Shown here piece by piece: positions 6,828-61,706 of a DNA stretch of 64,000 nt (positions are counted from its first letter, which is position 1; each line of letters opens with the position of its first letter). The notes under the pieces are model-generated. The model worked only from the letters and a program-made list of their open reading frames with translations, did not search any database and was not told where the DNA came from. Source of the DNA: Sipunculus nudus (Eukaryota; Annelida; Sipuncula; Golfingiida; Sipunculidae); NCBI GenBank assembly GCA_026874595.1, contig CM049306.1:18531019-18595018 (forward strand), given 5' to 3'. The position numbers and the translations under genes are program-made.

Positions 6828-7026
6828 ATGACGACGATCCAAATTGTCTTCGGAGTTTTCTGTCTGTACGGTAGCTACGTGGGCGCCACCTGTCCCGGGA
6901 GCCTGAACGAGCTCCCTGGAGGCAGTTTTTGTGCTCGCCTGTACGAGCACAGCAGTTCTGATTTGTCCAAGTCGTGCGGAGGAAGACAGCACGATCTGTA
7001 CCATGGACAGGAAGTCAATCTGCCGG
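6828..7026 (+). CDS. Syncollin-like secreted protein A, exon 1
   Basis: First coding exon of a 141-aa protein encoded by 6828-7026 plus 7692-7918. Residues 1-21 form a signal peptide (hydrophobic IQIVFGVFCLYG). The mature part begins with CPGSLNELP, then FCARLYEHSSSD, KSCGG and a linker ending LP. The donor CCGG|GTAACT splits a glycine codon in phase 1. Vertebrate syncollin has the same order of CP, CAKLY and CGG segments and is a luminal zymogen-granule protein, so a secreted or granule protein is the likely role; lumenal calcium binding is my inference. I chose ATG 6828 because it places the signal peptide at the N terminus, as in the paralogues. ATG 6708 is in frame and would add 40 residues, burying it, unless a 5' UTR intron ending at the CAG just before 6827 is removed. 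Confidence 0.82.
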
Positions 7027-7554
7027 GTAACTCCTTATACTTACACTGAATTAGTGCTAATGTATGTTCAAAATTGGGCTGTAACTATGCGTTATCTCAC
7101 GATACAATACGTATCGCGATACTTCAGGTTCATTCGATCCTGATACGATGACCGTAAACGGCTTACTATACACATGAGTAGTATATCAGACACAGCTGTA
7201 CTTGACACAATGTGTGTGTGTGGGGGGGGGGATCCCCTTTTAGCATATTTCATCTAACTGGTTTCCTTATTCTGAGTGCTATTTACCAATAATATGCCGT
7301 TATTCGATCCAAAACGCCTTGATATTATTTTTCAAGCAACTCGTAGCAACATGCGTCCACTGCTTTCTTTTTATTGGTACCAGTTGAAGCATACGAAATG
7401 TTTAAAAAGTAATATTTTGATCTAATAACGGTATATTGTGGGTAAATAGCCACTAAAAATTAGTGGCCCCCGCCCGCCTTCCATACACACTGTGTCAAGT
7501 GTGTATGAAATCAGAGTTTAATTCATTGGTCTTCTTTGTTCATATATCTTCTTT

Positions 7555-7556
<2 letters not shown>

Positions 7557-7630
<74 letters not shown>
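7557..7630. repeat. (TA)n microsatellite in the intron of gene A
   Basis: Pure TA dinucleotide for about 74 bp, ending about 60 bp before the exon 2 acceptor. The long IYIYIY frame read through it is not a protein. Confidence 0.95.
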
Positions 7631-7631
<1 letters not shown>

Positions 7632-7691
7632 GTGTGTCCCAATTGATATTTTGTTGTATTCGGTCATTTTACTTTTGTTCATATTTTTCAG

Positions 7692-7918
7692 GGTTATTCA
7701 ACGACATGACGTCATCCCTTGTGGTCCAGTATCCCTGCGTCCTGACTGTGTGGGAACACTCCGGATACAAGGGTCACACCACTCGCTTCAATCCCGGCAT
7801 ACAGCGTCACCTAGCGGATATTACACGAGGTGGCTGGGGATGGGCTAACTGGAATGACGTCATCAGTTCTATCAAATGTGACTGCAGTGGAACTGGCCAG
7901 GTCCGCGGGAAAAAATAA
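7692..7918 (+). CDS. Syncollin-like secreted protein A, exon 2
   Basis: The acceptor is ATTTTTCAG|GG. The exon completes the split glycine and gives LFNDMTSS, LVVQYPCVLTVWEHSGYKG, an RFNPG segment, a WGWANWNDVISS clamp and the closing CDCSG, ending in a basic GKK tail. Both NDxxSS motifs are present, so both candidate calcium sites of the beta-gamma-crystallin-like fold are kept. The intron is 665 bp and contains a pure (TA)n tract. AATAAA at 7948-7953 lies 30 bp after the stop. A near copy of this exon with a large deletion sits at 37820 (pseudogene D). Confidence 0.85.
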
Positions 7919-7947
7919 TGCACCACAAATAACCAGATTTGGTCAGT

Positions 7948-7953
7948 AATAAA
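7948..7953 (+). terminator. Poly(A) signal of gene A
   Basis: AATAAA lies 30 bp after the stop codon of gene A. In the D pseudogene copy the equivalent site reads CATAAA. Confidence 0.6.
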
Positions 7954-8100
7954 ACCATAATATGTTTACATATAAGATATGGTTCTTCTGCTTCTCTATA
8001 AATTCGATGAAATCAAAGAAATTTTCAAAATACGATGTTTTTTTTCGCTAATAAATTTCTCTATGAAGTTTCGTTTGTTCATGCGTATGTCTTATATATT

Positions 8101-8104
8101 ACAG

Positions 8105-8173
<69 letters not shown>

Positions 8174-8190
8174 TATATATATTGAAGGTA
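8101..8190. repeat. (CT)n / (TA)n microsatellite
   Basis: A CT run is followed by interrupted TA tracts. The matching CT/TA tract occurs in the duplicate at about 38057-38140. Confidence 0.9.
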
Positions 8191-8690
8191 GAGTTACCCT
8201 CCGCTGTAAAGTGCTCACCACATTCACCTGATGATCGGGTCGCATCCCGTAAAACAGACTATTGTGAATTTACAGTGTTGTTTTTCTTCAGAGTTATATA
8301 TATGTATGTATATACATGTATATATAAATATGCACACTTAGTAGATGTATTTATATATCATACTAGTATTTATTTGAGCAGTTGTTCCTGAACGGTCGAA
8401 AAAACGGTGAAACCTGATCACATCTAGTTCTGTTTGTTTTCACAGCGATCGTTTAACCGATTCCTGCTAGGTGTATTCTTGAAACTATCTTACAGGATTA
8501 ATTTTTAAACGACCCTGGATGCGTTAAGTACGTTTCAACCAAAACTGATATTCCTCCCTTAACACTTGTTGTGCTTCCCTGTCAGAGCATAAGTTCTTTC
8601 AAACAAAGGGTCCTAGACATTAGTAATATTTTCCAGGTAACTATACTTTGTACACGGACATATTAATAGATTAATTCAACAGATTTTTTT

Positions 8691-9240
8691 AAAGCGAACC
8701 TGTGAGCTTATGCGATGGTGCGGCGTCGTCCGTCGTGCGTCAGTGCGTCGTGTGTCGCCTGTACGTTAACCCATACTATCTCGAAAACGGCAGGAGCTAG
8801 CATCACCAAAGTTTATGCAAAAATCAGTCATCTAAAAAATATACTGGATTTTGATTATTTTTTGGCTATCTGCATTTACTTAGATTTTATATGGAAAAAG
8901 CTTAAAAAACCTTTAAAAATCTTCTTCTCCGAAACCGTCCAGCAAAATTGTCCAATATTTCAGAGATTAAATTCAGATACAATGTTTCTCAAGTTTTTTC
9001 GAATGGTTCCTGATCGGTGATTTTTGGCCGAGTTACAGGAAGATGAACTTAGTCAACTGTCAAAAAAGGATATTAAAATTTCAGTCTCAGAAGCTGAGCT
9101 ATCGTGGAGCTATCATCACCAAATTTTATGCCAATGTTGGTCACATGAGTCATACCTGAAATTGAGGTATTGGTGGCGCCACCTGCATCGGCCTTTTTTG
9201 TTTATAATTTAGTCAAGTGCCATAACGGCCAATTTTAGCT
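8691..9240. repeat. Interspersed repeat fragment
   Basis: This segment starts where homology with the D locus stops. It opens with GTGCGGCGTCGTCCGTCGTGCG-like sequence and the AACCCATACTATCTCGAAAACGG block, a type seen in dispersed mollusc repeats. It ends with the palindrome GGTGGCGCCACC (near 9173), shared with the 5' array and with 30211. No coding capacity is supported. Confidence 0.4.
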
Positions 9241-11379
9241 CAGTGGCTACAAAGATCTTCACCTCAAAAACCATTAGGCCAAATTCTTAAATCTCACACA
9301 TTAATTATCCTCAGATGTTGATAATTCAAGTTTGTTCAAATGGTTTTGGTTCAGTGCTTTTTGGCTGAGTTAAGGGAGGCTGAACTTAGCCAGTTTGTTG
9401 TATCTTCCTACATCAGTTAAAATCCTGCAAAATTTTTTTTTCGACCGACACCACTGAAGCCAATTTGTTTAATATTTTACAAGAATAATCCCCACAATAA
9501 TTCTTATAATGATTGTCTTTACTGGTTCCATATGAATGATTTTTGGCTGAATTATGGAGATTGAATTGAGTCATTTTACCATATATTTAAGCTGTGTGAT
9601 GCTGTTACATCTAGCCTGGCACCAGTTTATCAGAATCTATTACATCATACCACTAGACATTTAGATTTCAGGTTATCTGGGGTTAATATTGACAATAATG
9701 TTTTTAAAAGCTTTCAAATAAATAATAGATTTATGATTTAAATTATTAATTATAACGGGCAATGTTACAATCATGCCTATTCAGCTCTCTATGGCTATAT
9801 AAAGACGGCTGTACATGGATTATAAATGATTGGAATCCTTACTCAACTTAATTCAAGAATTTGCCATCAATGAGAGATACCTGTATTATAATTTTGCATT
9901 CACTATGCATCTATAATATCTCGCGCACGTGCGAAATTCCCAATCAAGAAGGAGAAGCATGAAAGAAGAAACACAGTACAAACATATAGTGGAAGCTTGA
10001 AAATTCTTGATCGGTGAAGTGGCGCGGGTGACGTGCGGGCTATGTTTATGTTTTACTTCACGGATGGAAGCTTGGGTGAGGGTGTAAGCAAACGGTTTTA
10101 CGAATAAAATATAGTTTTAAACACGTGGTTGTTCAGGGGATTATGTTTATTTAATAGATGTAGGAATTGGCCCGTTTAACGTTGTCAATTAAGCATTGAA
10201 TGGTTCGTACAGTGCCAACGGGGACTTCAAGCCAATTATTGTTTTTTTTTCTGTGAAATTTTAATTCAAGATTTTGAGATATTAATTCCTTATAGTCACC
10301 ATTTAAGATATCACATTGATCAGCCCTTTTATAGTCACCATTTAAGATATCACGTGGATCATTTCGACCTACATTCAGAGGTTTGCTTCTTGAGGTACCT
10401 AGAAGATGCCTGGATCTGGGAAAACACTGCCCAGAAGATGGAATATTGAAATTTGCTCAAACAGAACAACATATATACGTCCAAAGAGTTAACTTCTGCT
10501 GGTATAACACCCATTTATATTTCTCCAAGCTCTCTTGTCCGGCTGTTTAAAAAAGATCAGATCAGACTATGCAATACCTCAAATTTCTTCATATACATAA
10601 CATTTGCGACACAAAAGGAATATTCAGTTGGTAGTATAATTTTGATTGCTGGTATAAATACACCGTACACGGTGACACCGTGATTCCGCAGTCCTTACAT
10701 GGTATACACTTTACTGTAACGTTTATAAATTCATACATTTTTATATAAAATGTTAACCACTTAAATAATAGATAATAAACCAGCCCATTATCTGATGATT
10801 AAAGAGTAATTTCTTGAAAAACAACCTGTATACTCCGTGAATACTCAGGCGCATCCTAATATGTTTGGAGCTGCACAAAGAATATTATATATGTAAAATG
10901 ACAAAATTTGCTTAACATCGAAACAATTATCCACAGTTACATTTGAATGACAGTAAATGAGCCAATTTTAACATCATTATGCAACATTCACACCCTCATC
11001 ATAATAGGACATTCACACCTACGCTGATTATATCATAATTTGATAATCTTCTATGATGGGCAAAATGTGACAAGCGTGTGAACGTCCTATGAGCAGTGTG
11101 TTAATATCCTATGAGCTGTTTATATCCTATACGCTCTTGTATAATCTGTATTGTACCAGTTGAATAACGTGAAGAGTACAAGAGTTTGACTCCGAGTAAT
11201 GCAAACCTCTTTCACTCATCATTTAAATGGTTTGCCCAAAACCATAATAAACCAGCCCATTACCTGATGATTAAAGAGTAATTTATTTAGCGTTTATCTA
11301 CTACGTTATAAAGAGTAGCCACTCAGTTACGGGAAATCTCAAGTATGCATACTGATGCGTAGCTAGTCGTATGTGTACG

Positions 11380-11451
<72 letters not shown>

Positions 11452-17577: not shown

Positions 17578-17773
17578 ATGAAGACTACCCTGGTATTGCT
17601 GGTTCTGCTGGTGATAGGCGGGGACAACGTGAGTGGGCAGTGCCCCAGTACGGCCGGCCATCTACCATCCTATGTCTGTGCCCGTCTGTACGAGCACTAC
17701 GGGTTGACACTAGCGACATCATGCGGTGGATCGTATCAGGACATCGGCAACAATGTCCAGAAAAACCTCCCAA
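17578..17773 (+). CDS. Syncollin-like secreted protein B, exon 1
   Basis: First exon of a 139-aa protein (17578-17773 plus 22239-22462). The signal peptide is KTTLVLLVLLVIGG, followed by QCPSTAGHLPSY, VCARLYEHYG, SCGG and a linker ending NLP. The donor CTCCCAA|GTAAGA is in phase 1, identical in position to all paralogues. The ATG follows the conserved leader TTTGAGCGGGGA-CTGCAG. Compared with E and H it lacks the short GKRL insertion before CARLY. The 4.5 kb intron carries an 85-bp satellite remnant and two datable insertions. A secreted, granule-type role is inferred from syncollin. Confidence 0.8.
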
Positions 17774-18022: not shown

Positions 18023-18299
18023 TATTCAATATATTTACTTTTCCTGTTTTATTGAATTGGTGGCTCCAATCAAGACATCTTCGTCGGTAAACAGAATGAT
18101 GTCCCAGGTAGGACTAATAGTCGGGTTGTTGAAGGGTTCGACATGGAAAAATAGTAGTATGTTGATCTTGGGGTCATTCGATGCGCCAAAGTCTGTAGAA
18201 TGACATATCCAGAATCCGCTAAAATGCACTTCGAGGGGGAAACATTTTAGAGCTGTTTTAAATTTTAAAACAAAAAAAAACATAGAAAATCCTTATTTC

Positions 18300-18944: not shown

Positions 18945-19495
18945 TATATTGGAAACCATTAAAGAGATCCCAAACAATAAACTGTGTTGTGAGCGACCTG
19001 TGAAACCAATCTTGTATTTGTATAGACAATGTACCAAATAATACTAAAGAGATCTTGCATTTACATACACTAAGCACCACTACTATTAAAGAGATCCAAA
19101 CCAAAAAACTGTAATGTGAGCGACCTGTAAAATAAGATCCTGTATTTAAATACACCAAGCACCAACACTATTAAAGATATCCTAACCAATAAGATGTGTT
19201 GCGAGCGTCCTGTGAAACACATCTTGTATTTGTATAGACAATGCACCAAATAATATTAAAGAGATCACAAGCAATAAACTGTGTTGTGAGGGACCTGTGT
19301 AACAGATCTTGTATTTGTAAGGACTTAAGCACCAACACTATTAAAGATATACCAGCCCTAAAAAAACTGTGTTGTGAGGGACCTGTTAAACAAGATATTG
19401 TATTTGTAAGGACTTTAGCACTAACACTGTTAAAGAGATCCACAAAAACAAAATGTGTTGCGAGCGACCTGTGAAACAGATCTTGTATGCGTCCC
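18945..19495. repeat. 85-bp satellite, short array (about six units)
   Basis: Units contain TTGTGAGCGACCTGTGAAAC and ATCTTGTATTTGTA with ACCAAATAATA or CACCAACACTATTAAAGA endings. The paralogous place in the F intron holds a roughly 48-unit array. Confidence 0.9.
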
Positions 19496-22238: not shown

Positions 22239-22462
22239 GTCACTTAAATGACCAGACATCTTCAATTGGTGTTCGTTCGGGGTGTAAGCTTACCGCGTAT
22301 GAGCACACAGGATATCATGGTGACAGCGTCAGATTCGGACCAGGAATCCATTACAACATCCCCTCAAGCTGGAATGACAGAATCAGCTCAGTGAAGTGTC
22401 TTTGTGGGTCCATTCATGATGAACTGAAGGGGAAAAGGGGACAACAGGGATATATTTTCTGA
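22239..22462 (+). CDS. Syncollin-like secreted protein B, exon 2
   Basis: The acceptor is TGTGATTCAG|GT. It reads HLNDQTSSIGVRSGC, KLTAYEHTGYHGDS, RFGPGIHYNIPSS, WNDRISSVKCLCG and a basic tail (KGKRGQQ). This is the clearest beta-gamma-crystallin-like Greek key of the set (YEH-GY-G, F-PG, WNDRISS). The first clamp has LND where paralogues have FND. AATAAA at 22814-22819 is a plausible poly(A) signal and is shared with F. Confidence 0.8.
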
Positions 22463-24077: not shown

Positions 24078-25034
24078 ATGAAGTTCACCACGGTTTTCGT
24101 TGTTCTCATTGTCTTTGTGAGCGGTGTTAACGCCCTCTGTCGATGCCCTACCTGCAACTACCGAGTGACACCGCTTGTGTGCGGTTCTGTATGAACATAG
24201 CAGCAGCGACTGGACAAAGTTGTGTGGAGGCCAAAGTCATTACCTGGCTGATGGTGATGACAAGACGCTCGTCGGTATGTATAATAATTATCAATAATAT
24301 GTATTTTTGATTTTCACTCCATTTCCCGAATATTTACTTAACACCTGTTCGATTATGTTTTTTACATATGTGATGATAAAGACATATATGACGCCAGTGT
24401 ACTGCTACAGGAAACTAATTATCAGTAATAGTCCTAGACCTCATAAGTTTTATCAGTGATCAGCATAATCATATTTTATATTCTATATCACATGGGTCCG
24501 CGTTCATATGTAAGAAACACTTTTCTATTATGTTTGTTTTTTTTATATTTTTATCACACATGCACATCTAATGCGCATGTTCAATAAATTGTCCAAGTGC
24601 TTTAAAATGTATAATATAAAATAAAATATGATAAATTATACACATCATATCCAGATTGTTTGCAAATACATCAAATCCCATTAATGATATGATAGACATT
24701 AATCTCATAACATTGAAATAAATTAAGCGCCATATAAACAGAGGTTTACACTGAACATCTGGTAACTTTTCTAGGTTTTTTCAACGACTTGACGTCATCG
24801 ATAGCGGTGAAGTCACAGTGCGAGCTGATAGTCTGGGAGCACGGTAACAAGAATGGGGACACGCATCCCTTCGGACCTGGCGTTCACTCTCACCTGCCTA
24901 ACTGGAACAGAACTACTGGGGAACTACGAATTGGAATGACGTCATATCCTACGTCTACTGCACCTGTAAAGGAGCTTCTAAAGAAATACGAAATGGAAAA
25001 TAAAAACCAACGTGGACTAATTCCACACACATGA
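24078..25034 (+). pseudogene. Syncollin-like pseudogene G1 (broken copy of G2)
   Basis: Both exons (24078-24274 and from 24775) align closely with the intact gene at 58906-59696, including donor GTCG|GTATGT and acceptor TTTTCTAG. Exon 1 has lost 11 bp just after the signal peptide, between two CGCCC repeats. This removes the first CP motif and shifts the frame into a TGA within about 20 codons. Exon 2 has a separate 1-bp loss in the stretch AACTGGAACAGAAC, before the second calcium clamp, so WNDVIS is read out of frame. Two independent lesions make a functional product unlikely. Exon 2 upstream of the lesion is nearly identical to G2, so decay is recent. Confidence 0.88.
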
Positions 25035-25983: not shown

Positions 25984-26560
25984 AAAAAAGAGGGAGAGAT
26001 CCTGGTTTCTGAACTACATATCTTCAGATTAACAATAACATTTCTCTAAAAAGGGCCTATACATTTTTCGGTAATTAGGGTTAAACGTAACTGAGTGTGA
26101 CTCAGGGTTACTGAGCGTGAGCATTTCCAACACGATGGCAGCCATGAAGATATAGCAAGTAAGATTTAAGGTCAAAGGTCATATCTTATATAAGTCCATA
26201 ATATTGTATGTGACTGGTTATATATAAAATGGAGAGCACAACAGCTACAATATGAGTAAGCAATATTTGTAACGGCACCGACATTGTTTTTTTTTTTTTT
26301 TTACAAATATGAGCATTAATTTTGCTTCACAGGTCATGGGTCACTTCATATTGGCAACAGGCACTCTTGATCTCCGGATGTTTACTTGGAGATTTGCCAA
26401 ATTATCCGTTTATCAGAAAACCACTTTCGCGCTGCACGCTACTGAAAACTGAATATTAGCTTGTTTATATCTCAAAATCCGCTTTCCGAATCAGAGGACC
26501 CCTCGATGCACTTGGAAAAAAACTGCATTTGTAGTTGATTGATCCTCGTCAAATCAGACA
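25035..26560. other. Spacer between G1 and H1, part of the large duplication
   Basis: From about 25310 to 25460 a degenerate repeat of 50-60 bp (GGAAATGTAGG-CAGGGAAA) recurs, matched at 59990-60160. GT and GA microsatellites lie at 25937-25985. Homology with 59760-61489 is continuous. No gene is seen. Confidence 0.6.
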
Positions 26561-26640
26561 GTGAATTATTGTTGCCGTCCTGGCGGTTTTCAGTGTGTGT
26601 GGAGGCTACGTAAGCGCCGCCTGTCCGTCAAAAGTCAGTA
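26561..26640 (+). pseudogene. Fragment H1 of syncollin-like exon 1
   Basis: GCCGTCCTGGCGGTT and GGAGGCTACGTAAGCGCCGC correspond to the signal-peptide codons of gene H (61490). Upstream homology covers several hundred bases. The start codon position reads GTG instead of ATG, 9 bp after it are missing, and similarity stops shortly after CCGTCAAA, just after the first CP codons. It is a truncated, non-functional copy. Confidence 0.8.
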
Positions 26641-29200
26641 CCGGTTTTAGAAATTCGAAAACGGGGGGGGGGGGGGGTGTAATATACCGGGTTAGCGATT
26701 GATTGGTATAAAGCAATATTTATACATATATATAAATATATTTATTAATAATTACTATATATGTATTAATAATTACTATATACGTAACATATTTTCAGCC
26801 TAAGAAAAATAAATATAAATATTTTTCCTTTATCATTTTCATGTATTCGATTAAATCTAAAACCATGTCCATTAGGTAAGTTAATAACAGGTACACGGGG
26901 GAGGGTATGGGAGGGGGTGTTGCCTCCCCATATTAAGAAAATTTTCAAATATGTAATCTAAAGTTGACAATTTTAGGCACCTTTCACAAAAAATATGAGG
27001 ATTTTCTGTTCCTTAACTACTATTCTCTTTATTGTCATTGCATAACGTAGTCAATCTTCAGAGGGTGGGGGATCACGTGAGGCTGGCTATGATATTTATT
27101 TTTCTTCAAAATTTGAATTTCAAAATTTCACGCTGTTGCCGGGTCTCGGCACCCGGGCAGTCATGCATGAGATAACTGACGCTTGTGGGGGACCCAGTTG
27201 TTGCTGCTATTTTATTTTCGTACGGTTCGGTAGTTTCAGGTATAACACTAACAGTACGAGCAAAACACCGGTAAAACAGGGTTAAATTTACAGTATCTAT
27301 CCCTTTTTGTATTAAGCAATAATGACAATTCTTTGCTGACACAAGGAGGTTACAACAACAAGAAATGACCGATGCATGCATCTGAACAAGGTGCAGCGCA
27401 AGTGTCAAGGACAAGAGAGTCTGTGAACTCAGCCAAATGTTTGGTGAGGCGGGTTTGTTGCGATTGGAAACTTGGAGAGTACATTTTTTAACACATTTGT
27501 ATATACTGTATATCTTTATGTCTTACTTAAACGTTACCTATATAAGAGTCTCGTATTCTTCTATCGTAATGTCATGGTAATCGACCCCCGCTACCGTCCC
27601 ATTGTCTACAGCTATATGTTCATACAGACGGGCACAGAGAAGTTTTCCGTGTACGTAATTTGGCAAGGGGTCCAGCAGTGGCGGATCCAGACCCCCCCCC
27701 CCGGTTGAGTTGTAACAACTCTCATTTTATTAATTTCTTTGCCTGTTATTTGTAATTAAATTTTATTTTTTAATATATCTTTTTTTATTCCCTAGCAATT
27801 AAATTATTACTTTTCCACCGTTTCAAACAATCTAACTCATAAGTTCAAGTGAGGATGTTAATGTACAGCCCTGTGATTAGGATAGCATCCAAATGTTTCA
27901 TTATTGAGGGAGGGAGTCTTCCCCTCATTACACTCTGCTTGGTCATAAAATCGAGAACCCCCTCCCCATTGGCCTGTGAGTGAGGCCTGTAGGCAACTAG
28001 AACATATAAATACATTTAAACGATGATATTTTGCAAATTATAAACGTATTTGCATATTTTTACCACATAGATATCAATATGTTACAAACGATTGAATGTT
28101 TAGACTTTCCATTTAAAGTGAGTGTCTTTTTGGTCCAAATGCCCCCCCCCCCCTCATCCCCCCCCCCCCCCCATCCGGTTGTGTAGCCTGTGTATGTTTT
28201 TGGAATTCCTGTCACGTGCCAATCTGTATACTGAGCATCAATTAAAACCACAGTGACTTCCGGTCTGAAATTTATCACTCAGTCAGATCATGATACTTTA
28301 TAGTTTAACATTCAGGTAGCTGGTGGACCAGACAAAACTTGGTTTATCAGCCCTTCCGAGCTGCCTCGTCCGTCATTTAGATGTAATCACATTCAGACCA
28401 GGGTGTCCAGGATGACAAGCTAACCCCGGTACCGGGGGTGGGAGGGGGGGGGGGGGCATTCTTCATAGCTTTGCCAGGAAGGTGTTATGTATTTCCCTTG
28501 GTTGATAAGTTTGTCTGTTAGCAACGACACACAAATGCTTTGAACGGTTTTTGACGAGATTTTGTTAAGGTAATACACAAAGAGCAATTTATTATATTTA
28601 GGTAGTAATATAAATCATGATAATATTTTTTTAATTCAGAAGATAATGTATCATTGTGACGCAGGACGATACTAACGTCTCCGGGTAGAGTCCATCCCAT
28701 TCAAAGGTATTGGGGTAGCAGTTGTTAGGCTACTGATCAGGAGAACCCTTTTACTGTACAGTGATAAACATGACAGTTTTTGAAACATTTTGACCCTTGC
28801 CGGGTACACAGGTGGTGATGCGTATACACACATTTAGATTTCATATTTAATTTAGTCACGTTATACTAATAATCACACAATTTGGCAAATAATGGGACAA
28901 AATACCAACAACTACTACACTGAGCTTTTAAAATAACTAAGATATTATCTTCAAACAGCATATTAGCAGATTTGTTATTATTATTAAAATACACAAAATA
29001 TAATATAATGACAAATCAAGAAAGTTAAAAAATATGTGTTTATCTGAGTGCTTTAAATCCTGAAGCTTGACTATGGTATGTATAATTCTGGACAAGTTCA
29101 AGTTTTGCGTCTAAAGCCTGTTTACTTTGAAGTAATTGAGGCATTATGCAAAGTTCAGTGTTCAGGAGAAAAATCAATGCCGGATACCAAATCAATGTTT
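26641..29200. other. Intergenic, no gene seen
   Basis: Several G/C homopolymers (26665, 27697, 28142-28172, 28440) and AT-rich DNA. A hAT-like terminal motif CAGTGGCGGATCCAG occurs at 27675-27689 next to a C-run. A 102-codon minus-strand frame at 27106-27414 has no recognisable domain. Confidence 0.5.
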
Positions 29201-31761: not shown

Positions 31762-31957
31762 ATGAAGACCATCCTGGTATTGTTGGTTCTGCTGGTGATA
31801 GACGGGGACAACGTGAGTGGTCAGTGTCCCAGTACGGCCGGCCATCTACCATTCTATGTCTGTGCCCGTCTGTACGAGCACTACGGGTCGACACTAGCGA
31901 CATCATGCGGTGGATGGTATCACGACGTCGGCATCAATGTACAGAGAAACCTCCCAA
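31762..31957 (+). CDS. Syncollin-like secreted protein C, exon 1
   Basis: First exon of a 135-aa protein (31762-31957 plus 32426-32637). It has a leucine-rich signal peptide (KTILVLLVLLVIDG), then QCPSTAGHLPFY, VCARLYEHYGS, SCGGWYHDVG and NLP. The donor CCCAA|GTAAGT is in phase 1. It is very close to exon 1 of B, while exon 2 is closest to E. This mixed affinity suggests exchange between paralogues. The intron is only 468 bp, the shortest of the intact genes. Confidence 0.82.
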
Positions 31958-32425: not shown

Positions 32426-32637
32426 AACATTTCAACGACGTCACGTCTTCCCTGGTGGTCAGGCATGGCTGCACCTTGGACGCGTGGGAGCATTTCGGTC
32501 ATAGCGGGTCCCATATCACCTACCAAGCAGCTGTCCACCATGACCTGAGAGGCGTATTCTGGTCTACAGGCTGGAATGACGTCATCAGTTCCGTCAGGTG
32601 CAAATGTAATGGACACCGAGACCCACATGGCCGCTAA
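32426..32637 (+). CDS. Syncollin-like secreted protein C, exon 2
   Basis: The acceptor is AATTTCAG|AACATTTC. It reads HFNDVTSS, LVVRHGCTLDAWEHFGHSG, a histidine-rich HHDLRG loop, GWNDVISSVRCKCNG and the tail HRDPHGR. Both calcium-clamp motifs are intact. The loop between them is longer than in E. AATAAA at 32875-32880 may be the poly(A) signal. Confidence 0.82.
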
Positions 32638-37334: not shown

Positions 37335-37337
<3 letters not shown>

Positions 37338-37819
37338 GGGGTCCCCTTTTAGCATCAAACTGGTTTTCCTTATTTTGAGGGCCTGACGGCTATTTACCTG
37401 AAATATGCCGTTATTCGATCCAAAACGCCTTAATATTATTTTTCAAGCATGCATCTCGTAGCATCCTGCTTTTACTGCTTTCTTTTTTATTGGTACCAGT
37501 TGAAGCAGACGAAATGTTTGAAAAGTAATATTTTGATCGTATAACGGTATATTGTGGGTAATTACCCACAAAATAAGAAAACCTAGTTTGATAAACGATA
37601 AAGTATGCTCACGTAAAACGACAGTTGTTTGAGCCCCCCCCCCCCCTTCCATACATACACCCAGTATGTGTCAAGTGTGTGTGATATCAGAGTTTGATTC
37701 ATTGGTCTTCGTTGTTCATTTATCTTCTTTGATATATATATATATATATATAGATATACGCCTGTCCCCATTGATATATTGTTGTATTCGGCCATTTTAC
37801 TTTTGTTTATCTTTATCAG

Positions 37820-38016
37820 GGTTATTCAACGACATGACGTCATCCCTGGTGGTCCAGTATCCCTGCGTCCTGACTGTGTGGGAACACTCCGGATACAAGG
37901 GTCACACCACTCGCATTAATCCCAGCATACAGCATGTGACTGCAGTGGAACCGCCCATGTTCGCGGGGAAAAAAATGTACCGCAAATTACCAGATTTGGT
38001 CAATCATAAACAATAA
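37820..38016 (+). pseudogene. Orphan syncollin-like exon 2, pseudogene D
   Basis: The acceptor TTATCAG|GG and the first ~40 codons are almost identical to exon 2 of gene A: LFNDMTSS, PCVLTVWEHSGYKG. After ATACAGC about 75 bp are missing, so the second clamp (WNDVISS) is lost. The sequence rejoins at ATGTGACTGCAGTGG in another frame and runs to a stop at 38016. There is no exon 1 on its left, because homology to gene A starts inside the intron. It should be non-functional unless it is spliced to a distant exon 1. Confidence 0.85.
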
Positions 38017-41122: not shown

Positions 41123-41333
41123 ATGAAGACCATTCTGGTATTGTTGGTTCTGCTGGTGATAGACCGGGAAATTGTGAGAGGTCAGTGTCCCAGAACGACC
41201 GGTGGTCTACCATCCTATGTCGACGGCAAACGGCTCTGTGCCCGTCTTTACGAGCACTACGGGTCGAATCTAGAGACATCATGCGGTGGATCGTATTACG
41301 ACATCTTCATTGGTGAACAAAAAGATCTCCCAA
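41123..41333 (+). CDS. Syncollin-like secreted protein E, exon 1
   Basis: First exon of a 142-aa protein (41123-41333 plus 42592-42809). Signal peptide KTILVLLVLLVID, then QCPRTTGGLPSYVDGKRLCARLYEHYGS in overlapping order, SCGGSYYDIF and an EQKDLP linker. It keeps the short DGKRL insertion found also in H (YGKRL) but missing from B, C and F. The donor CCCAA|GTAAGA is in phase 1. Its 3' end (IGEQKDLP) closely resembles F, unlike B and C, which suggests exchange of exon ends between E and F. Confidence 0.82.
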
Positions 41334-42591: not shown

Positions 42592-42809
42592 TAAATTTCA
42601 ACGACGTCACGTCGTCTCTGGTGGTCAGGCCTCTCTGTTCCTTGGACGTGTGGGAACATTTCGGGCAGAGTGGCTCCCCTACCACTTACCATACAGCTGT
42701 CCACGTAAACATCGGAAACTGGAATGATGTCATCAGTTCCGTCAAATGCAGATGTAACGGACCACCACCAAACCCACACGGCAGAAAATTGAAAGAACCA
42801 ACTCATTGA
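42592..42809 (+). CDS. Syncollin-like secreted protein E, exon 2
   Basis: The acceptor is TAATTTCAG|TA. It reads NFNDVTSS, LVVRPLCSLDVWEHFGQSG, HVNIGNWNDVISSVKCRCNG and a basic tail PHGRKLKEPTH. The second Greek key has a shorter loop than C. Both clamps are intact. AATAAA at 42930-42935 is a plausible poly(A) signal. Confidence 0.82.
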
Positions 42810-48849: not shown

Positions 48850-48894
48850 AATTCTTCGGAAACATCGGCAGCAATGTCCAGAAAAAACTCCCAA
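48850..48894 (+). other. Leftover B-type exon 1 end, possible 45-nt cryptic exon
   Basis: The stretch after AATAG reads as 45 nt ending CTCCCAA|GTAAGA and resembles the 3' end of exon 1 of B. It is bounded by AG and GT, is phase 1-1 and keeps the frame (FFGNIGSNVQKKLP). It is most simply a scar of unequal exchange with an E-type gene. Use as an optional exon would need a 67-bp intron. Confidence 0.6.
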
Positions 48895-49090
48895 GTAAGA
48901 CAGTTCATAAGTATAACATATGTAGAAGTAGAATATACGTTAGATGAAAGTAACAGAAATTTCCAGAAACCCTTAACACGTCATTTATGCAATGATAATC
49001 AGTAGCAGAAAATAGACCATAAACTGTCAAATAATTGTAATATTAAGAGTAGCCTAACAGCAACAGTTCAGTAATAATTATTTAAATATA

Positions 49091-49137: not shown

Positions 49138-49849
49138 AATTAGTAGTCATTATATTAACTTTTCCTGTTTTATGGAATTGGTGGCTCCAATCAAGCCAGT
49201 AAACCGTATGATATCCCAGGTAGGAGGTTGAAGGGTTCGATATGAAAAAATAGTAGTATGTTGATCTTGGGGTCATTCGATGCGCTAAAGTCTGTAGAAT
49301 GACATATCCAGAATCGGCTAAAATGCATTTTGGGGGAAACATTTTAGAGCTGTATTAAATTTTAAAATAAAAATTAAACATAGAAATTACTTATTTCCTG
49401 ATAATGGAAGCTCACATTAATGTACATATAGCACATTATATAGTAACTTGGAGAAGTGTACACGGTTTATTGACGCCACAAGATTGGTCTTTTGGTATTC
49501 ATTTTTCAATTTAGATTTAATTAAATACGAAATTTATGCATATTCAAAATTGATTGTTACGCCGGAAGGGGTTGACACTTCACAGCTGCCCGTTTCCTTG
49601 CCGCCCTAACGGCTGTTAGACGAGGTGATGATTCAAGATAGAACACCCACAGGACTGATATAGTGTTGTTAAGACCGGATGTCACATGTTAAGATGTAAA
49701 CATTATCACGGGGGTCAATACAGGGGATGGGGGTATAACCCCCCTCACACACACACACACACAAACACACACACTTACTACAACAAAGGGGACTTGTCAA
49801 TGTAATCATCTCCCTGCTATTCGGAGATTTGTTTTATATATTGGAACCT

Positions 49850-52800
49850 ATTAAAGAGATCCAAACCAATAAACTATGTTGTGAGCGACCTGTGAAACAG
49901 ATCTTGTATTTGTATAGACAATGTACCAAATAATACTGAAGAGATCCAAACCAAGAAACTATGTTGTGAGCGACCTGTGAAACAGATCTTGTATTTGTAT
50001 AGACAATGTACCAAATAATACTGAAGAGATCCAAACCAATAAACTATGTTGTGAGCGACCTGTGAAACAGATCTTGTATTTGTATAGACAATGTACCAAA
50101 TAATACTGAAGGGATCCAAACCAATAAACTATGTTGTGAGCGACCTGTGAAACAGATCTTGTATTTGTAAAGACAATGTACCAAATAATACTGAAGAGAT
50201 CCAAACCAATAAACTATGTTGTGAGCGACCTGTGAAACAGATCTTGTATTTGTATAGACAATGCACCAAATAATACTGAAGAGATCCAAACCAATAAACT
50301 ATGTTGTGAGCGACCTGTGAAACAGATCTTGTATTTGTATAGACAATGTACCAAATAATACTGAAGAGATCCAAAACAATAAACTATCTTGTGAGCGACC
50401 TGTGAAACAGATCTTGTATTTGTATAGACAATGCACCAAATAATACTGAAGAGATCCAAACCAATAAACTATGTTGTGAGCGACCTGTGAAACAGATCTT
50501 GTATTTGTAAAGACTAAGCACCAACACTATTAAAGATATCCCAACCCAAAACTGTGTTGTGAGGGACCTGTTTAACAAGATCTTGTATTTGTATAGACAA
50601 TGCACCAAATAATACTGAAGAGATCCAAACCAATAAACTATGTTGTGAGCGACCTGTGAAACAGATCTTGTATTTGTATAGACAATGTACCAAATAATAC
50701 TGAAGAGATCCAAACCAATAAACTATGTTGTGAGCGACCTGTGAAACAGATCTTGTATTTGTATAGACAATGCACCAAATAATACTGAAGAGATCCAAAC
50801 CAATAAACTATGTTGTGAGCGACCTGTGAAACAGATCTTGTATTTGTAAAGACTAAGCACCAACACTATTAAAGATATCCCAACCCAAAACTGTGTTGTG
50901 AGGGACCTGTTTAACAAGATCTTGTATTTGTATAGACAATGCACCAAATAATACTGAAGAGATCCAAACCAATAAACTATGTTGTGAGCGACCTGTGAAA
51001 CAGATCTTGTATTTGTATAGACAATGCACCAAATAATACTGAAGAGATACAAACCAATAAACTATGTTGTGAGCGACCTGTGAAACAGATCTTGTATTTG
51101 TAATGACTAAGCACCAACACTATTAAAGATATCCCAACCCAAAACTGTGTTGTGAGCGACCTGTGAAACAGATCTTGTATTTGTATAGACAATGCACCAA
51201 ATAATACTGAAGAGATCCAAACCAATAAACTATGTTGTGAGCGACCTGTGAAACAGATCTTGTATTTGTTAAGACTAAACACCAACACTATTAAAGATAT
51301 CCTAACCCTAAACTGTGTTGTGAGCGACCTGTGAAACAGATCTTGTATTTGTATAGACAATGCACCAAATAATACTGAAGAGATCCAAACCAATAAACTA
51401 TGTTGTGAGCGACCTGTGAAACAGATCTTGTATTTGTATAGACAATGCACCAAATAATACTGAAGAGATCCAAACCAATAAACTATGTTGTGAGCGACCT
51501 GTGAAACAGATCTTGTATTTGTAAAGACTAAGCACCAACACTATTAAAGATATCCCAACCCAAAACTGTGTTGTGAGCGACCTGTGAAACAGATCTTGTA
51601 TTTGTATAGACAATGCACCAAACAATACTGAAGAGATCCAAACCAATAAACTTTGTTGTGAGCGACCTGTGAAACAGATCTTGTATTTGTGAAGACTAAG
51701 CACCAACACTATTAAAGATATCCCAACCCAAAACTGTGTTGTGAGGGACCTGTTTAACAAGATCTTGTATTTGTATAGACAATGCACCAAATAATACTGA
51801 AGAGATCCAAACCAATAAACTATGTTGTGAGCGACCTGTGAAACAGATCTTGTATTTGTAAAGACTAAGCACCAACACTATTAAAGATATCCCAACCCAA
51901 AACTGTGTTGTGAGGGACCTGTTTAACAAGATCTTGTATTTGTATAGACAATGCACCAAATAATACTGAAGAGATCCAAACCAATAAACTATGTTGTGAG
52001 CGACCTGTGAAACAGATCTTGTATTTGTAAAGACTAAGCACCAACACTATTAAAGATATCCCAACCCAAAACTGTGTTGTGAGGAACCTGTTTAACAAGA
52101 TCTTGTATTTGTAAGGACTAAGCACCAACACTTTTAAAGATATCCCAACCAATAAAATGTGCTGCAAGTGACCTGTGAAACAGATCGTGTATTTGTATAG
52201 ACAATGCACCAAATATAACTGAAGAGATCCAAACCAAATAAACTATGTTGTGAGCGACCTGTGAAACAGATCTTGTATTTGTAAAGACTAAGCACCAACA
52301 CTATTAAAGATATCCCAACCCAAAACTGTGTTGTGAGGGACCTGTTTAACAAGATCTTGTATTTGTAAGGACTAAGCACCAACACTATTTAAGATATCCC
52401 AACCGAAAAACTGTGTTGTGAGGGACCTGATTAACAAGATCTTGTATTTGTAAGGACTTAGCACCAACACTATAAAAGAAATCCCAACCAATAAAATGTG
52501 TTGCAAGTGACCTGTGAAACAGATCTTGTATTTGTATAGACAATGCACCAAATAATACTGAAGAGATCCAAACCAATAAACTATGTTGTGAGCGACCTGT
52601 GAAACAGATCTTGTATTTGTAAAGACTAAGCACCAACACTATTAAAGATATCCCAACCCAAAACTGTGTTGTGAGGGACCTGTTTAACAAGATCTTGTAT
52701 TTGAAAGAACTAAGCACCAACACTATTTAAGATATCCAAAACAAAAAACTGTGTTGTGAGGGACCTGTTTAACAAGATCTTGTATTTGTAAGGACTAAGC

Positions 52801-53935
52801 ACCAACACTATTAAAGATATCCCAACCCAAAATTGTGTTGAGAGGGACCTGTGTAACAGATCTTGTATTTGTTAAGACTAACCACCAACAATATTAAAGA
52901 TATCCCAAGCCAAAAACTGTGTTGTGAGGAACCTGTTAAACAAGATATTGTATTTGTAAGGACTAAGCACCAACACTATTAAAGATATCCGAACCCAAAA
53001 ACTGTGTTGTGAGGGACCTGTTCAACAAGATCTTGTATTTGAAAGGACTAAGCAGCAACACTATTAAAGATATCCCAACCCAAAAACTGTGTTGTGAGCG
53101 ACCTGTGTAACAGATCTTGTATTTGTTAAGACTAAGCACCAACACTATTAAAGATATCCCAACCCAAAACTGTGTTGTGAGGGACCTGTTTAACAAGATC
53201 TTGTATTTGTAAGGACTAAGCACCAACACTATTTAAGATATCCCAACCCAAAACTGTGTTGTGAGGGACCTGTTTAACAAGATCTTGTATTTGTAAGGAC
53301 TAAGCACCAACACTATTAAAGATATCCGAACCCAAAATTGTGTTGAGAGGGACCTGTGTAACAGATCTTGTATTTGTTAAGACTAAGCACCAACACTATT
53401 AAAGATATCCCAACCCAAAAACTGTGTTGTGAGGGACCTGTTAAACAAGATATTGTATTTGTAAGGACTAAGCACCAACACTATTAAAGATATCCGAACC
53501 CAAAAACTGTGTTGTGAGGGACCTGTTTAACAAGATCTTGTATTTGTAAGGACTAAGCACCAACACTATTAAAGATATCCCAACCCAAAAACTGTGTTGT
53601 GAGCGACTTGTGTAACAAGATCTTGTATTTGTAAGGACTAAGCACCAACACTATTAAAGATATCCCAACCCAAGAACTGTGTTGTGAGGGACCTGTGAAA
53701 CAAGATCTTGTATTTGTTAAGACTAAGCACCAACACTATTAAAGATATCCCAACCCAAGAACTGTGTTGTGAGGGACCTGTGAAACAAGATCTTGTATTT
53801 GTAAGGACTAAGCACCAACACTGTTAAAGAGATCCACCCCAAAAAAAAACTGTGTTGCGAGCGACCTGTGAAACAGATCTTGTACTTGTATAGACAATGC
53901 ACGAAAAGAGATCCCAACCAATTAAATGTTTTGTG
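49850..53935. repeat. 85-bp satellite, expanded array of about 48 units
   Basis: Two unit types are seen. Type 1 has GAGATCCAAACCAATAAAC, GTGAGCGACCTG and ACCAAATAATACTGAA. Type 2 has GATATCCCAACCCAAAACTG, GAGGGACCTGTTTAAC and AGCACCAACACTATTAAA. Type 1 is pure at the left (49850-50500), types 1 and 2 alternate in the middle, and type 2 dominates the right (52400-53900). All minus-strand frames of 60-158 codons here (repeated SIIWCIVYTNTRSV and similar) come from this repeat and are not genes. Confidence 0.95.
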
Positions 53936-54900: not shown

Positions 54901-55109
54901 GTCACTTCAATGACCAGACATCTTCAATTGGAGTCCGTTCGGGCTGTGAGCTTACCGCGTATGAGCACAAAGGATATCATGGTGACAGCGTCAGGTTCGG
55001 ACCAGGAATCCATTACAACATCCCCATAAGCTGGAATGACAGAATCAGCTCAGTGGAGTGCCTTTGTGGGTTCAATGCTAAACCGAAGGGGAAAAGGAGA
55101 CAACATTGA
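54901..55109 (+). CDS. Syncollin-like secreted protein F, exon 2
   Basis: The acceptor is ATGATTGCAG|GT. It reads HFNDQTSSIGVRSGC, ELTAYEHKGYHGDS, RFGPGIHYNIPIS, WNDRISSVECLCG and a basic tail KGKRRQH. It is nearly identical to exon 2 of B but has FND in the first clamp and ends five codons earlier. AATAAA at 55485-55490 matches that of B. Confidence 0.83.
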
Positions 55110-58811: not shown

Positions 58812-58819
58812 TTTATATA
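58812..58819 (+). promoter_or_regulatory. TATA-like element of gene G2
   Basis: TTTATATA lies about 90 bp before the ATG and is conserved in pseudogene G1 (GGATTTATATACA near 23960). The promoter differs from the GGTACCGG type of B, C, E and F. Confidence 0.5.
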
Positions 58820-58905
58820 CTAATAAAACAGAAAAAGGTAAAGAGCAACTCAGGCACTGTGGTTCAGCAGGTTGGATTACTTTAGTCCGGGCAAAATTCG
58901 TGACT

Positions 58906-59113
58906 ATGAAGTTCACCACGGTTTTCGTTGTTCTCATTGTCTTTGTGAGCGGTGTTAACGCCCGCTGCCCGCCCTCTGTCGATGCCCTACCTGCAACCAC
59001 CGAGGGACACCGCTTGTGTGCGGTTCTGTATGAACATAGCAGCAGCGACTGGACAAAGTCGTGTGGAGGCCAAAGTCATTACCTGGCTGATGGTGATGAC
59101 AAGACGCTCGTCG
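58906..59113 (+). CDS. Syncollin-like secreted protein G2, exon 1
   Basis: First exon of a 143-aa protein (58906-59113 plus 59473-59696). Signal peptide KFTTVFVVLIVFVSG, then ARCPPSVDALP, a GHRLCAVLYEHSSSDW segment, KSCGG, and a linker rich in acidic residues ending TLVG. The donor GTCG|GTATGT is in phase 1. CAV replaces CAR in the conserved CARLY motif. The intron is 359 bp with a TA tract. Its twin G1 at 24078 is a pseudogene, so this is the only working G-type copy in the window. Confidence 0.82.
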
Positions 59114-59162
59114 GTATGTATAATAATTATTAATAATATGTATTATTGGTATTATTGGTATT

Positions 59163-59166
<4 letters not shown>

Positions 59167-59202
<36 letters not shown>
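59167..59202. repeat. (TA)n microsatellite in the G2 intron
   Basis: Short TA tract not present at the same length in the G1 pseudogene. Confidence 0.85.
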
Positions 59203-59205
<3 letters not shown>

Positions 59206-59472
59206 GGTCAACGTTCATATGTAAGTCCGACACATTTCTATTATGTTTTTTATTATCACACACTACTATTGCTCATGTTCAATAAATTGTTCAAATGCTA
59301 TAAAATGTATAATATAATATAATATATAATAAATTATACACATCATATCCAGATTGTTTGCAAATACATCAAATCATAGAAATGATATGACTGACATTAA
59401 CACCATAACACTGGAATAAATTAAGCAACATAATAACAGAGGTTTACACTGAACATCTAGTAACTTTTCCAG

Positions 59473-59696
59473 GTTTTTTCAACGACTTGACGTCATCGAT
59501 AGCGGTGAAGTCACAGTGCGAGCTGATAGTCTGGGAGCACGGTAACAAGAATGGGGACACGCATCCCTTCGGACCTGGCGTTCACTCTCACCTGCCTAAC
59601 TGGAAACGAAACTACTGGGGAACTACGAATTGGAATGACGTCATATCCTACGTCTACTGCACCTGTAAAGGAGCTTCTAAAGAAATACGAAATTGA
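59473..59696 (+). CDS. Syncollin-like secreted protein G2, exon 2
   Basis: The acceptor is ACTTTTCCAG|GT. It reads FFNDLTSSIAVKSQC, ELIVWEHGNKNGDT, PFGPGVHSHLPNW, NWNDVISYVYCTCKG and ends SKEIRN. The second clamp ends SY instead of SS, so its last ligand residue differs from the other members. The two TGACGTCA octamers of this exon are also present in G1. Confidence 0.82.
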
Positions 59697-61489
59697 AAAA
59701 AATAAAAACCAATATGGACATATATTCCACACAAATGACTTAACGTTTACGTTCTTTACGGGCTTCTAACACATTTTGAACTGACTCAGATTATGACATT
59801 TACTTAGAGATTGTTAAAACAAACAGGATGCAACCTTCAGTTGGAATAACTTGTCTTACGTTCTTTCTTTACCATTGTGTAATATTACTCTATAAGGCAG
59901 AGGGAGTAGGGGATAAAGTACCATTGAAGAAAAAAGGGTAAAATGCCAAGGGCTTCACCACACGATCGTATGACAGGGGAACATGGACATCGTAAAATGA
60001 AATGGGAACAGGGGAATGTCGTTGAAAATCATTAAATATGGGACAGAGAATATTATTAAATTAAGTGGGCATGTAGAACAGGAAAATTGTTGAATTAAGT
60101 GGAAATGTTGGGCAGAAAAACCTAGTCTAATGAAATGGGAATTTATGTAGGACCATAGAACAACTTTAAATTGGAAACGTGGATCCTCCCTATGAAAGAG
60201 GAACACATAGAAGGGGAACATGGTTATAAACAGGTACACGGAGAAGGGAAAAATCGCCAGGAAATGCGCACGTAGGACAGAGGAATATCGTTAGATAAAT
60301 GAAGTATTACAGGGAAACTTGATCTTAAGAAGTATGTATTTGGAAACGTCAAATAAAGTGGGAATATCAATTAAAGGTTCAATATTGGAACGTGGGCAAA
60401 GACTGCTTTGTTAGATTGTAAAAACATTACAAGGATGCAATAGGGATAATTTTTTTTGTAATCGGTTACATGAAAGCCGACAGTTATAATAAGTCGCCTA
60501 AATATATATGTAAAGCTTTGTAAATAAAATAAATGCTCTGTGTTATCTCATTTAATTATTTATGATATGATAAGGGGAGCTGGATGTTAGATCTAGAAAG
60601 TTATAATCTTCCGTGTAAATACCTGTGTAAGTTTGAACAATATTCATGTTTGAGCGAGGCATCATGGTAAAGCCTTCTTATAATATATGGCAGACACAGC
60701 GTGCAAAGATAAACCTCTATTAAACCCTGTGGCTGAATCGTTATGAAAACAAGTGAAATGGCCCCGGTCCTGTTTTTCAGGTACGTGCTCCAAAACATTC
60801 AGGAAAATAATATCTACTATAATACCTACTTATCAAATCTTATCAAAGCTATTTTATATAGGTATGTGTAAACATTTGTTTTCGACATGGGATCCTGTAA
60901 AATTATTTCATTTTTTTGTCATTATTTCATTTTTTTTTTTCATTATGACTTAAAATGAAAACGATACCAAAAGTCTTCAAAGTTTCCTTTTCCCATATAT
61001 ATCTTGTGTTTGTGGGTGTGTGCGGGTGTGTGTGTGTGTGCATGAGAGAGACAGACGGAGTGAGAGAGAGAGATGTTTTGGTTTCTGGTCACATATTAAA
61101 AATGTCCATAGATATGCCCTTGACGGGCTCCGTATAATAGCGAGCACAACAACTACAACATGAGTAATCAAAATCATATACCGACTGGTTTGATAAAAGC
61201 ACCGACAATGGTCTTTTTTATACAAATATGAGTATTTACAGTCACGGGTCATTGGTCACTTGGTACTGAATGCAGGGAAATGGGGAGGACTTATCGCTCA
61301 TGATCTGCGGCTGTTTACTTGTAACTTAGCCAAATTATCCGTTATATCAGGAAAACACTCCCGCTACATGCTACTACAAACCGGGTAAGCTTGTGTATAT
61401 CTTGAAATCCGCTGTCCAAATCTGAGGACCACTCAGTGCACTTGGAAAACACTGCATCGGTAGTTGATTGATCCTCGTCAAATCAGACC
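59697..61489. other. Spacer between G2 and H
   Basis: Matches 25035-26560. It holds degenerate GGAAATGT-GG-CAG repeats (59990-60160), GT/GA tracts (61013-61072) and no gene. Confidence 0.6.
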
Positions 61490-61706
61490 ATGAATTATAC
61501 TATGATTGTAGCCGTCCTGGTGGTTCTCGGGGATTGTGGAGGCTACGTAGGCGCCGCCTGTCCGTCAAACCTTGATGCACTGCCAAAATACGTGTATGGA
61601 AAACGTCTCTGTGCCCGTCTGTATGAACATAGCAGTAGAGAATGGGGACGTTCATGCGGAGGTCGATATCACGATATTATGATAGATCAGCACGGGACTC
61701 TAATAG
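61490..61706 (+). CDS. Syncollin-like secreted protein H, exon 1 (partial gene)
   Basis: An ATG at 61490 begins MNYTMIVAVLVVLGDCGG (the second ATG at 61502 is an alternative start), then CPSNLDALPKYVYGKRLCAR, RLYEHSSREW, SCGGRYHDIM and GTLIG. The donor ATAG|GTAACG is in phase 1, as in all family members. No exon with FND-TSS was found between here and the end of the window, so exon 2 lies beyond 64000 or is lost. Reading through the donor gives a stop at 61813, which I do not take as the real end. A truncated copy of this exon is H1 at 26561. Confidence 0.75.

What the first reader, a model, noticed from the sequence alone, without database searches (positions are those of the whole stretch)
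6828..61706. Tandem cluster of syncollin-like genes in an invertebrate
Six intact genes (A, B, C, E, F, G2), one partial gene (H) and three broken copies share one architecture: signal peptide, CP, CARLYEH, SCGG | FND-TSS, C-L-VWEH, WND-ISS, C-C, with a phase-1 intron always at the bar. Length and cysteine order match vertebrate syncollin, which I know as an exocrine granule protein, reported also to bind bacterial peptidoglycan. I know of no described clustered family of this kind. Expansion with divergence of the loops would fit a digestive or defence secretion.
Basis: partly seen in the sequence, partly recalled or inferred. Interest (0 to 1): 0.85.

Follow-up and report, generated by a model that had tools for sequence, protein, structure and literature searches.

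The report
Syncollin-like calcium-crystallin gene cluster
An unnamed, probably invertebrate genome carries a large family of secreted proteins related to syncollin, a vertebrate pancreas-granule protein, and their sequences suggest that syncollin belongs with the calcium-binding relatives of eye-lens crystallins.

Summary
The cluster is real: six intact two-exon genes, exon 1 of a seventh (its exon 2 lies about 2 kb past the window) and three broken copies, with GT-AG phase-1 introns. All seven spliced proteins pass Pfam's Syncollin cut-off. (1) Kinship to beta-gamma crystallins: profile searches of solved structures hit crystallins in 16 of 17 and 17 of 17 rows, each weakly; 2 of 6 bacterial crystallin-like proteins scanned pass the Syncollin cut-off; 31 of 49 proteins carry both Ca2+ motifs against a shuffled mean of 0.01. 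(2) A large family: 57 Syncollin matches in the 1.43-Gb genome; 42 of the 53 outside the cluster are uninterrupted single frames with a hydrophobic leader. (3) Exon mosaics: B and C share exon 1 (93% identity) but not exon 2 (51%). I read them as secreted, disulfide-stapled, Ca2+-binding Greek-key proteins of a defence or digestive secretion. That function is inferred; fold and expression could not be tested.

The parts
6828..7026 (+). gene A exon 1 (signal peptide, CP, CARLYEH, SCGG)
   Evidence: PF15138 79.3 bits for the spliced protein
7692..7918 (+). gene A exon 2 (NDMTSS, VWEH, NDVISS, CxC, stop)
17578..17773 (+). gene B exon 1
18059..18114 (+). exon-1 3' remnant in B's intron (E/F-like)
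22239..22462 (+). gene B exon 2 (NDQTSS, NDRISS)
   Evidence: PF15138 43.6 bits
24078..24274 (+). broken copy D exon 1 (frame-shifted, in-frame stop), counterpart of G2
24775..25006 (+). broken copy D exon 2 (frame-shifted)
26565..26639 (+). broken copy H', first part of exon 1
27541..27660 (-). broken copy H', rest of exon 1, inverted
   Evidence: inverted match 27425-27665 to 61821-61581
31762..31957 (+). gene C exon 1
32426..32637 (+). gene C exon 2 (NDVTSS, NDVISS)
   Evidence: PF15138 47.0 bits
37820..37973 (+). broken copy A', exon 2 only
   Evidence: 7227-7805 matches 37336-37933
41123..41333 (+). gene E exon 1
42592..42809 (+). gene E exon 2 (NDVTSS, NDVISS)
   Evidence: PF15138 61.4 bits
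48587..48782 (+). gene F exon 1
48862..48896 (+). second, truncated exon-1 3' end left in F's intron (B-like)
54901..55109 (+). gene F exon 2 (NDQTSS, NDRISS)
   Evidence: PF15138 41.0 bits
58906..59113 (+). gene G2 exon 1
59473..59696 (+). gene G2 exon 2 (NDLTSS; second site NDVISY, off consensus)
   Evidence: PF15138 79.2 bits
61490..61706 (+). gene H exon 1; exon 2 starts at window-equivalent 65976, outside the window (its second site NDVITF is off consensus)
   Evidence: spliced protein PF15138 69.4 bits

Best explanation
These are secreted single-domain proteins of the syncollin family, which I place in the beta-gamma crystallin superfamily. Supported by sequence: a signal peptide (by eye and by hydrophobicity) is followed by one domain of two Greek keys; the intron cuts the first key just before its Ca2+ motif; six cysteines are kept; each key carries an N/D-N/D-X-X-S/T-S motif in most members. 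Inferred: the cysteines form three disulfides; Ca2+, in the granule or outside the cell, locks the fold; variable loops and changeable surface charge bind microbial or dietary surface glycans, for example peptidoglycan, in a digestive or mucosal secretion. Tandem duplication, segmental duplication and exon-1 exchange diversify the binding surface. My probability is about 0.9 for family and superfamily, 0.75 for real Ca2+ binding, 0.45 for the glycan-binding defence or digestive role; the single figure below is for the whole statement.
For: Syncollin: 6 of 6 spliced proteins and H pass the PF15138 cut-off; 42 of 42 single-exon relatives match it at E<=0.01, though they were found with that model. 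Crystallin kinship: PDB profile searches give beta-gamma crystallins in 16 of 17 rows at E<=10 and, with the 42-member profile, 17 of 17 at E<=1. 2kp5, 3hzb, 3i9h, 2bv2 and 3hz2 are named as such crystallins in PMC8639718 (passages); for spherulin 3a, 1yhp and 5z6d/5z6e the fold is recalled. hhalign against nine bacterial domains gives 98.9% and 99.5%. Bacterial L001 and L002 pass the Syncollin cut-off (54.8 and 77.2 bits, summed over 2 and 4 stretches) together with Crystall, Crystall_3 and I36; L001 has cysteines at four of the six positions (partly by eye). Ca2+ motifs, strict consensus from PMC8639718: 34 of 49 first sites, 45 of 49 second sites, both in 31 of 49, against a shuffled mean of 0.01 and maximum of 1; in the seven window proteins 7 of 7 first and 5 of 7 second sites. 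Whole-gene constraint: omega 0.13-0.64 in 27 of 28 hand-picked pairs, the other undefined. Expansion: 57 matches, a lower bound. Net charge of mature proteins -4 to +20.
Against: No fold prediction and no expression or binding data. Single PDB rows are weak: one of 17 reaches E<=0.001 and none of 17, and several rows are variants of one protein (clostrillin). No window protein reaches the cut-off of a crystallin model (best 22.3 bits against 27.3 for Crystall_3, 22.2 against 25 for Crystall). Of six bacterial proteins scanned, four do not pass the Syncollin cut-off (two score 19.0 and 21.7, two give no match), L004 was not scanned, and all were fetched with the window profile, so the hhalign figures are not independent. 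15 of 49 first sites are off the strict consensus, 14 of them by a final Ala; L059 is off at both. The 49 include near-copies. Exon 1 of C, E and F has dN/dS near 1 (C-F 1.04, E-F 1.10, C-E 0.93), which may be relaxed constraint rather than diversifying selection; neither was tested. Signal peptides rest on hydrophobicity only.
Confidence: 0.55

Rival explanations
1. Granule packaging: like vertebrate syncollin (recalled literature), the proteins act inside exocrine granules, condensing cargo or acting at the granule membrane in a Ca2+-sensitive way.
Against: A packaging role needs one or a few genes, not some 49 diverging ones on eight or more contigs. The human branch is long, so its place is unsure.
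Confidence: 0.25
2. Secreted protease inhibitors of the I36 kind, which share this fold (recalled), used against microbial or dietary proteases.
For: Inhibitor_I36 matches at E<=0.01 in 17 of 42 relatives, and below cut-off in A, B, F and H.
Against: All window I36 scores lie under the 21.1-bit cut-off (best 16.8, 17.5 for H); I36 also hits the bacterial crystallin proteins, so it may mark the fold only.
Confidence: 0.1
3. Ca2+-binding matrix proteins of a shell or other mineralised tissue.
For: Leader peptides and Ca2+ motifs; a different crystallin protein, with an ETX_MTX2 domain, is listed in a mussel shell proteome (PMC6641155, passages).
Against: The organism is not shown to have a shell; many members are basic (up to +20), whereas acidic proteins are typical of shell matrix (recalled).
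Confidence: 0.1

Closest known systems
Syncollin (SYCN; Pfam PF15138)
   Same: Leader peptide, one domain, cysteine order, CA-L-Y and C-L-VW motifs, and an RRG stretch in many relatives (human sequence recalled).
   Different: Ca2+ sites mostly canonical here and degenerate in the recalled human sequence; a large multigene family; a phase-1 intron in the window clade.
Microbial and tunicate beta-gamma crystallins (Hahellin 2kp5, clostrillin 3so1, M-crystallin 3hz2, Ciona 2bv2, spherulin 3a 1hdf)
   Same: Greek-key signature and Ca2+ motif.
   Different: Six kept cysteines, an N-terminal CP extension and in most members a longer loop before the second site.
Bacterial cysteine-bearing beta-gamma crystallins (L001, Thiofilum flexile)
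   Same: C-x-x-Y-E-H, WND--S, C-x-L, WND--S, CxC in each of two domains; whole protein passes the Syncollin cut-off.
   Different: Two domains in one protein; lacks the first and third cysteine.
Peptidase inhibitor family I36
   Same: Weak profile hits.
   Different: All window scores under the cut-off.

Membership tests
Syncollin (PF15138) | score above the curated cut-off (32.8 bits) | tested here: met
   6 of 6 window proteins and H, 41.0-79.3 bits; 54 of 57 genome matches over the cut-off
Syncollin (PF15138) | cysteine order and near-full-length domain | tested here: met
   six cysteines in 49 of 49, but the first two were required by the script that chose the 42, and excluded loci L042, L043 and L049 have lost a cysteine; 39 of 57 genome matches start at profile position 1 or 2 and reach 111-112; the human comparison uses a recalled sequence
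Syncollin (PF15138) | signal peptide | tested here: met
   hydrophobic leader by script in 42 of 53 other loci; in the seven window genes by eye only
Syncollin (PF15138) | exocrine granule location and Ca2+-sensitive syntaxin binding (recalled) | not testable with these tools
   no expression or binding data
beta-gamma crystallin superfamily | sequence kinship to solved members | tested here: met
   16 of 17 and 17 of 17 PDB rows, individually weak; hhalign 98.9-99.5% to bacterial domains that were found with the window profile
beta-gamma crystallin superfamily | Ca2+ motif N/D-N/D-X-X-S/T-S in each Greek key | tested here: met
   both in 31 of 49, second in 45 of 49, first in 34 of 49
Pfam Crystall (PF00030) and Crystall_3 (PF08964) | score over the curated cut-off | tested here: not met
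   best 22.2 of 25 bits (Crystall) and 22.3 of 27.3 (Crystall_3) among window proteins; I claim superfamily kinship, not membership of these two families
beta-gamma crystallin superfamily | double Greek-key fold | not testable with these tools
   structure prediction switched off
Inhibitor_I36 | score above cut-off (21.1 bits) | tested here: not met
   best 16.8 bits; H 17.5 bits

The most novel reading that the evidence does not exclude
Vertebrate syncollin is a remnant of an animal family of secreted Ca2+-binding beta-gamma crystallins that works as a diversified microbe- or food-binding arsenal in invertebrates. Vertebrate syncollin lost its Ca2+ sites in parallel with lens crystallins. In the window clade an intron inside the first Greek key lets half-domains be exchanged between neighbours.
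Probability: 0.3. Interest if true: 0.78.

Novelty: new variant of a known kind. Interest (0 to 1): 0.58.

Why it matters
Syncollin has Ca2+-related and bacteria-related activities in print (recalled), but the open library searched here states no superfamily for it: a search for 'syncollin' with 'crystallin' found one paper, on another topic by its listing. Placing it among Ca2+-binding crystallins gives a predicted fold, two predicted metal sites and a set of relatives with intact sites to test. It also shows a large expansion of a secreted protein with exon mosaics, in one genome.

Tried and rejected
Nulls and rejected ideas. Relatives in viral contigs: 24 stretches matched a pattern, none confirmed. 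tRNA and Rfam: nothing in the window. Pfam on ten ORFs outside the cluster, of 409 open frames listed (cluster frames included): only a rolling-stone (Rost) protein over its cut-off. Taxon by haemocyanin and ELH families: no match, not informative. Canonical crystallin (PF00030) in the genome: one partial match, so the expansion is of the syncollin type. Two-exon copies elsewhere: the E exon-2 search gave 28 places, 8 in the cluster and 20 on loci already held, so none was seen elsewhere at that sensitivity; the exon-1 search did not complete. A link to vdg3 (abundant, multicopy digestive-gland transcript of mussels; passages of PMC5549309 and PMC4203926) could not be tested because no sequence was at hand. 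Alternative donor in F: the frame beyond the first donor soon meets a stop, so a second working exon-1 end was rejected. Papers: searches for syncollin with crystallin, mollus-, invertebrate and 'gene families' found 1, 0, 0 and 2 papers, none on this topic by listing; of the 64 papers that hold 'syncollin' I saw the listing of 40. A wider search listed papers without the word. Absence from print is claimed for this library and these searches only.

Rows dropped: of 53 genome loci outside the cluster, 11 were left out of the 49-protein counts (interrupted, truncated or without a Met before the leader: L024, L032, L035, L040, L042, L043, L049, L052, L056, L060, L061). The script also required the first two cysteines. 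B, C and F of the window are not among the 57 matches. L003 was left out of alignments A2 and A3; L006 entered A2 only; L004 was aligned (A3) but not scanned with Pfam. The 28 pairs were picked by hand.
Full report
Observation. The cluster is present at the stated coordinates. Motif scanning, reading of both exon sets and splicing by script give six intact genes A, B, C, E, F and G2, exon 1 of H, and three broken copies. The introns of the intact genes are GT-AG, phase 1, and fall a few residues before the first ND--SS motif. H is completed by an exon 2 at window-equivalent 65976, beyond the end of the window, so the cluster has seven intact genes. A tblastn sweep of the window found no further complete exon.

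Family. All six proteins pass the Pfam Syncollin cut-off (41.0 to 79.3 bits against 32.8), and so does H (69.4 bits).

Superfamily. Weak Crystall, Crystall_3 and I36 matches in the same scan led further. A profile of the six proteins against PDB sequences gave 17 rows at E<=10; 16 are beta-gamma crystallins and one is a viral capsid protein; the best E is 0.00097. A profile of 42 relatives gave 17 rows at E<=1, all beta-gamma crystallins, best E 0.0014. Single rows are therefore weak, and several are variants of clostrillin; what counts is that the hits are of one kind. For 2kp5, 3hzb, 3i9h, 2bv2 and 3hz2 the kind is stated in PMC8639718 (passages); for spherulin 3a, 5z6d/5z6e and 1yhp it is recalled. 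A scan of bacterial genomes gave 74 pattern matches and seven confirmed relatives. I scanned six of them with Pfam: L001 (Thiofilum) and L002 (an Acidobacteriaceae bin) pass the Syncollin cut-off by whole-protein scores summed over two and four stretches, and pass crystallin cut-offs too; L003 and L006 score 19.0 and 21.7, under the cut-off; L005 and L007 give no Syncollin match. L001 has cysteines at four of the six positions. Profile comparison with nine bacterial domains gave 98.9% and 99.5% probability, though these were fetched with the window profile. No window protein passes a crystallin model's own cut-off, so the claim is kinship at superfamily level.

Calcium sites. The microbial crystallin consensus is N/D-N/D-X1-X2-S/T-S (PMC8639718, passages). 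Among 49 intact proteins (42 single-frame plus seven of the window) 34 have it strictly in the first Greek key, 45 in the second and 31 in both; in the window it is 7 of 7 and 5 of 7. Shuffling each protein 200 times gave a mean of 0.01 and a maximum of 1 protein with two motifs. In the recalled human sequence the two places read ANTASS and SNAISA, which do not fit. The same paper says that lens crystallins have lowered Ca2+ affinity, so a parallel loss in vertebrate syncollin is a reasonable but untested inference.

Genome. The window lies in a 1.43-Gb assembly. PF15138 has 57 matches there, 54 over cut-off, a lower bound, and rings in none of 14 control genomes. Four of the 57 belong to the window cluster (A, E, G2, H); B, C and F fell below that search. 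I fetched the other 53. 42 are uninterrupted single frames with a hydrophobic leader before the first cysteine; 11 are interrupted, truncated or lack a clear start. Introns in untranslated parts are not excluded. They form several clusters, for example at C1:20.43-20.49 Mb, C1:54.95-55.06 Mb, C4:54.28-54.35 Mb and C12:7.12-7.22 Mb. In contrast PF00030 has one partial match. All six cysteines are present in 49 of 49; the first two were required for inclusion, and three excluded loci, L042, L043 and L049, have lost a cysteine. 31 well-filled columns have low entropy; they include the cysteines, Greek-key glycines and aromatics and the ND--SS residues, while the loops vary. Two members, L009 and L022, end in hydrophobic tails that suggest membrane anchoring (inference).

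History. A tree of 52 sequences puts the seven window genes together with modest support (82/74) and the recalled human sequence beside them (93/92, on a long branch). Self-comparison of the window shows a segmental duplication: A-B-D-H' corresponds to A'-F-G2-H. Exons tell different stories: exon 1 of B, C, E and F is 82-93% identical, whereas exon 2 falls into a B/F type (91%) and a C/E type (78%) that are 46-52% identical to each other. Remnants of a second exon-1 end lie behind exon 1 in F and B. Exon-1 exchange or gene conversion across the intron is the simplest reading. Whole-gene omega in 27 of 28 hand-picked pairs is 0.13-0.64, the other being undefined, so the genes are under constraint overall. 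Exon 1 taken alone has dN/dS near 1 in C-F (1.04), E-F (1.10) and C-E (0.93), and 0.45-0.60 in B-C, B-E and B-F (ratios); with so few sites this may be relaxed constraint, noise or diversification.

Mechanism. Supported by sequence: leader peptide (heuristic), single domain, six kept cysteines, crystallin kinship, Ca2+ consensus, expansion, overall constraint. Inferred: Ca2+ binding, disulfide pairing (the first and third cysteine, both absent in L001, may pair), and a glycan- or microbe-binding role in a digestive or mucosal secretion. The charge range (-4 to +20) and loop variation suit a set of binders with different targets. Rivals are granule packaging, protease inhibition and mineral matrix.

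Limits. Structure prediction is off. No transcript data are at hand. Literature was searched only in the open library.

Verdict. A correct observation with a correct family name, enlarged here to a large, Ca2+-motif-bearing branch of the crystallin superfamily with exon mosaics. New variant of a known kind; function still to be shown.

Noticed in passing
window 3558-4376 (+): A 273-aa open frame matches Pfam Rost (Protein rolling stone), 51.9 bits against 26.8; the only hit over a cut-off among the ten ORFs scanned outside the cluster.
   Followed up: partly
window 49848-53902 and 19046-19488: An 85-bp tandem repeat fills the introns of F (about 48 copies) and B (about 5 copies); the array length differs greatly between the two duplicates.
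   Followed up: partly
window 231-2344: 280-bp tandem repeat, 7.6 copies at 93%.
   Followed up: no
window 26177-27665: An inversion broke the H' copy inside exon 1, leaving its parts on opposite strands.
   Followed up: yes
L009:1393-1911 (-) and L022:1387-1902 (-): Syncollin-like proteins with C-terminal hydrophobic tails, suggesting GPI-anchored or membrane-bound forms.
   Followed up: no
L001:2845-3507 (+): Bacterial protein of two cysteine-bearing crystallin domains that passes Syncollin, I36, Crystall and Crystall_3 cut-offs at once; these Pfam families overlap here.
   Followed up: partly
L003:2998-4062 (+): Bacterial protein joining crystallin domains to an ETX_MTX2/aerolysin-like part; described only.
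   Followed up: no
L059:1591-2019 (+), G000:C2:23191583-23191873: Most divergent member: off the Ca2+ consensus at both sites but all six cysteines kept.
   Followed up: no
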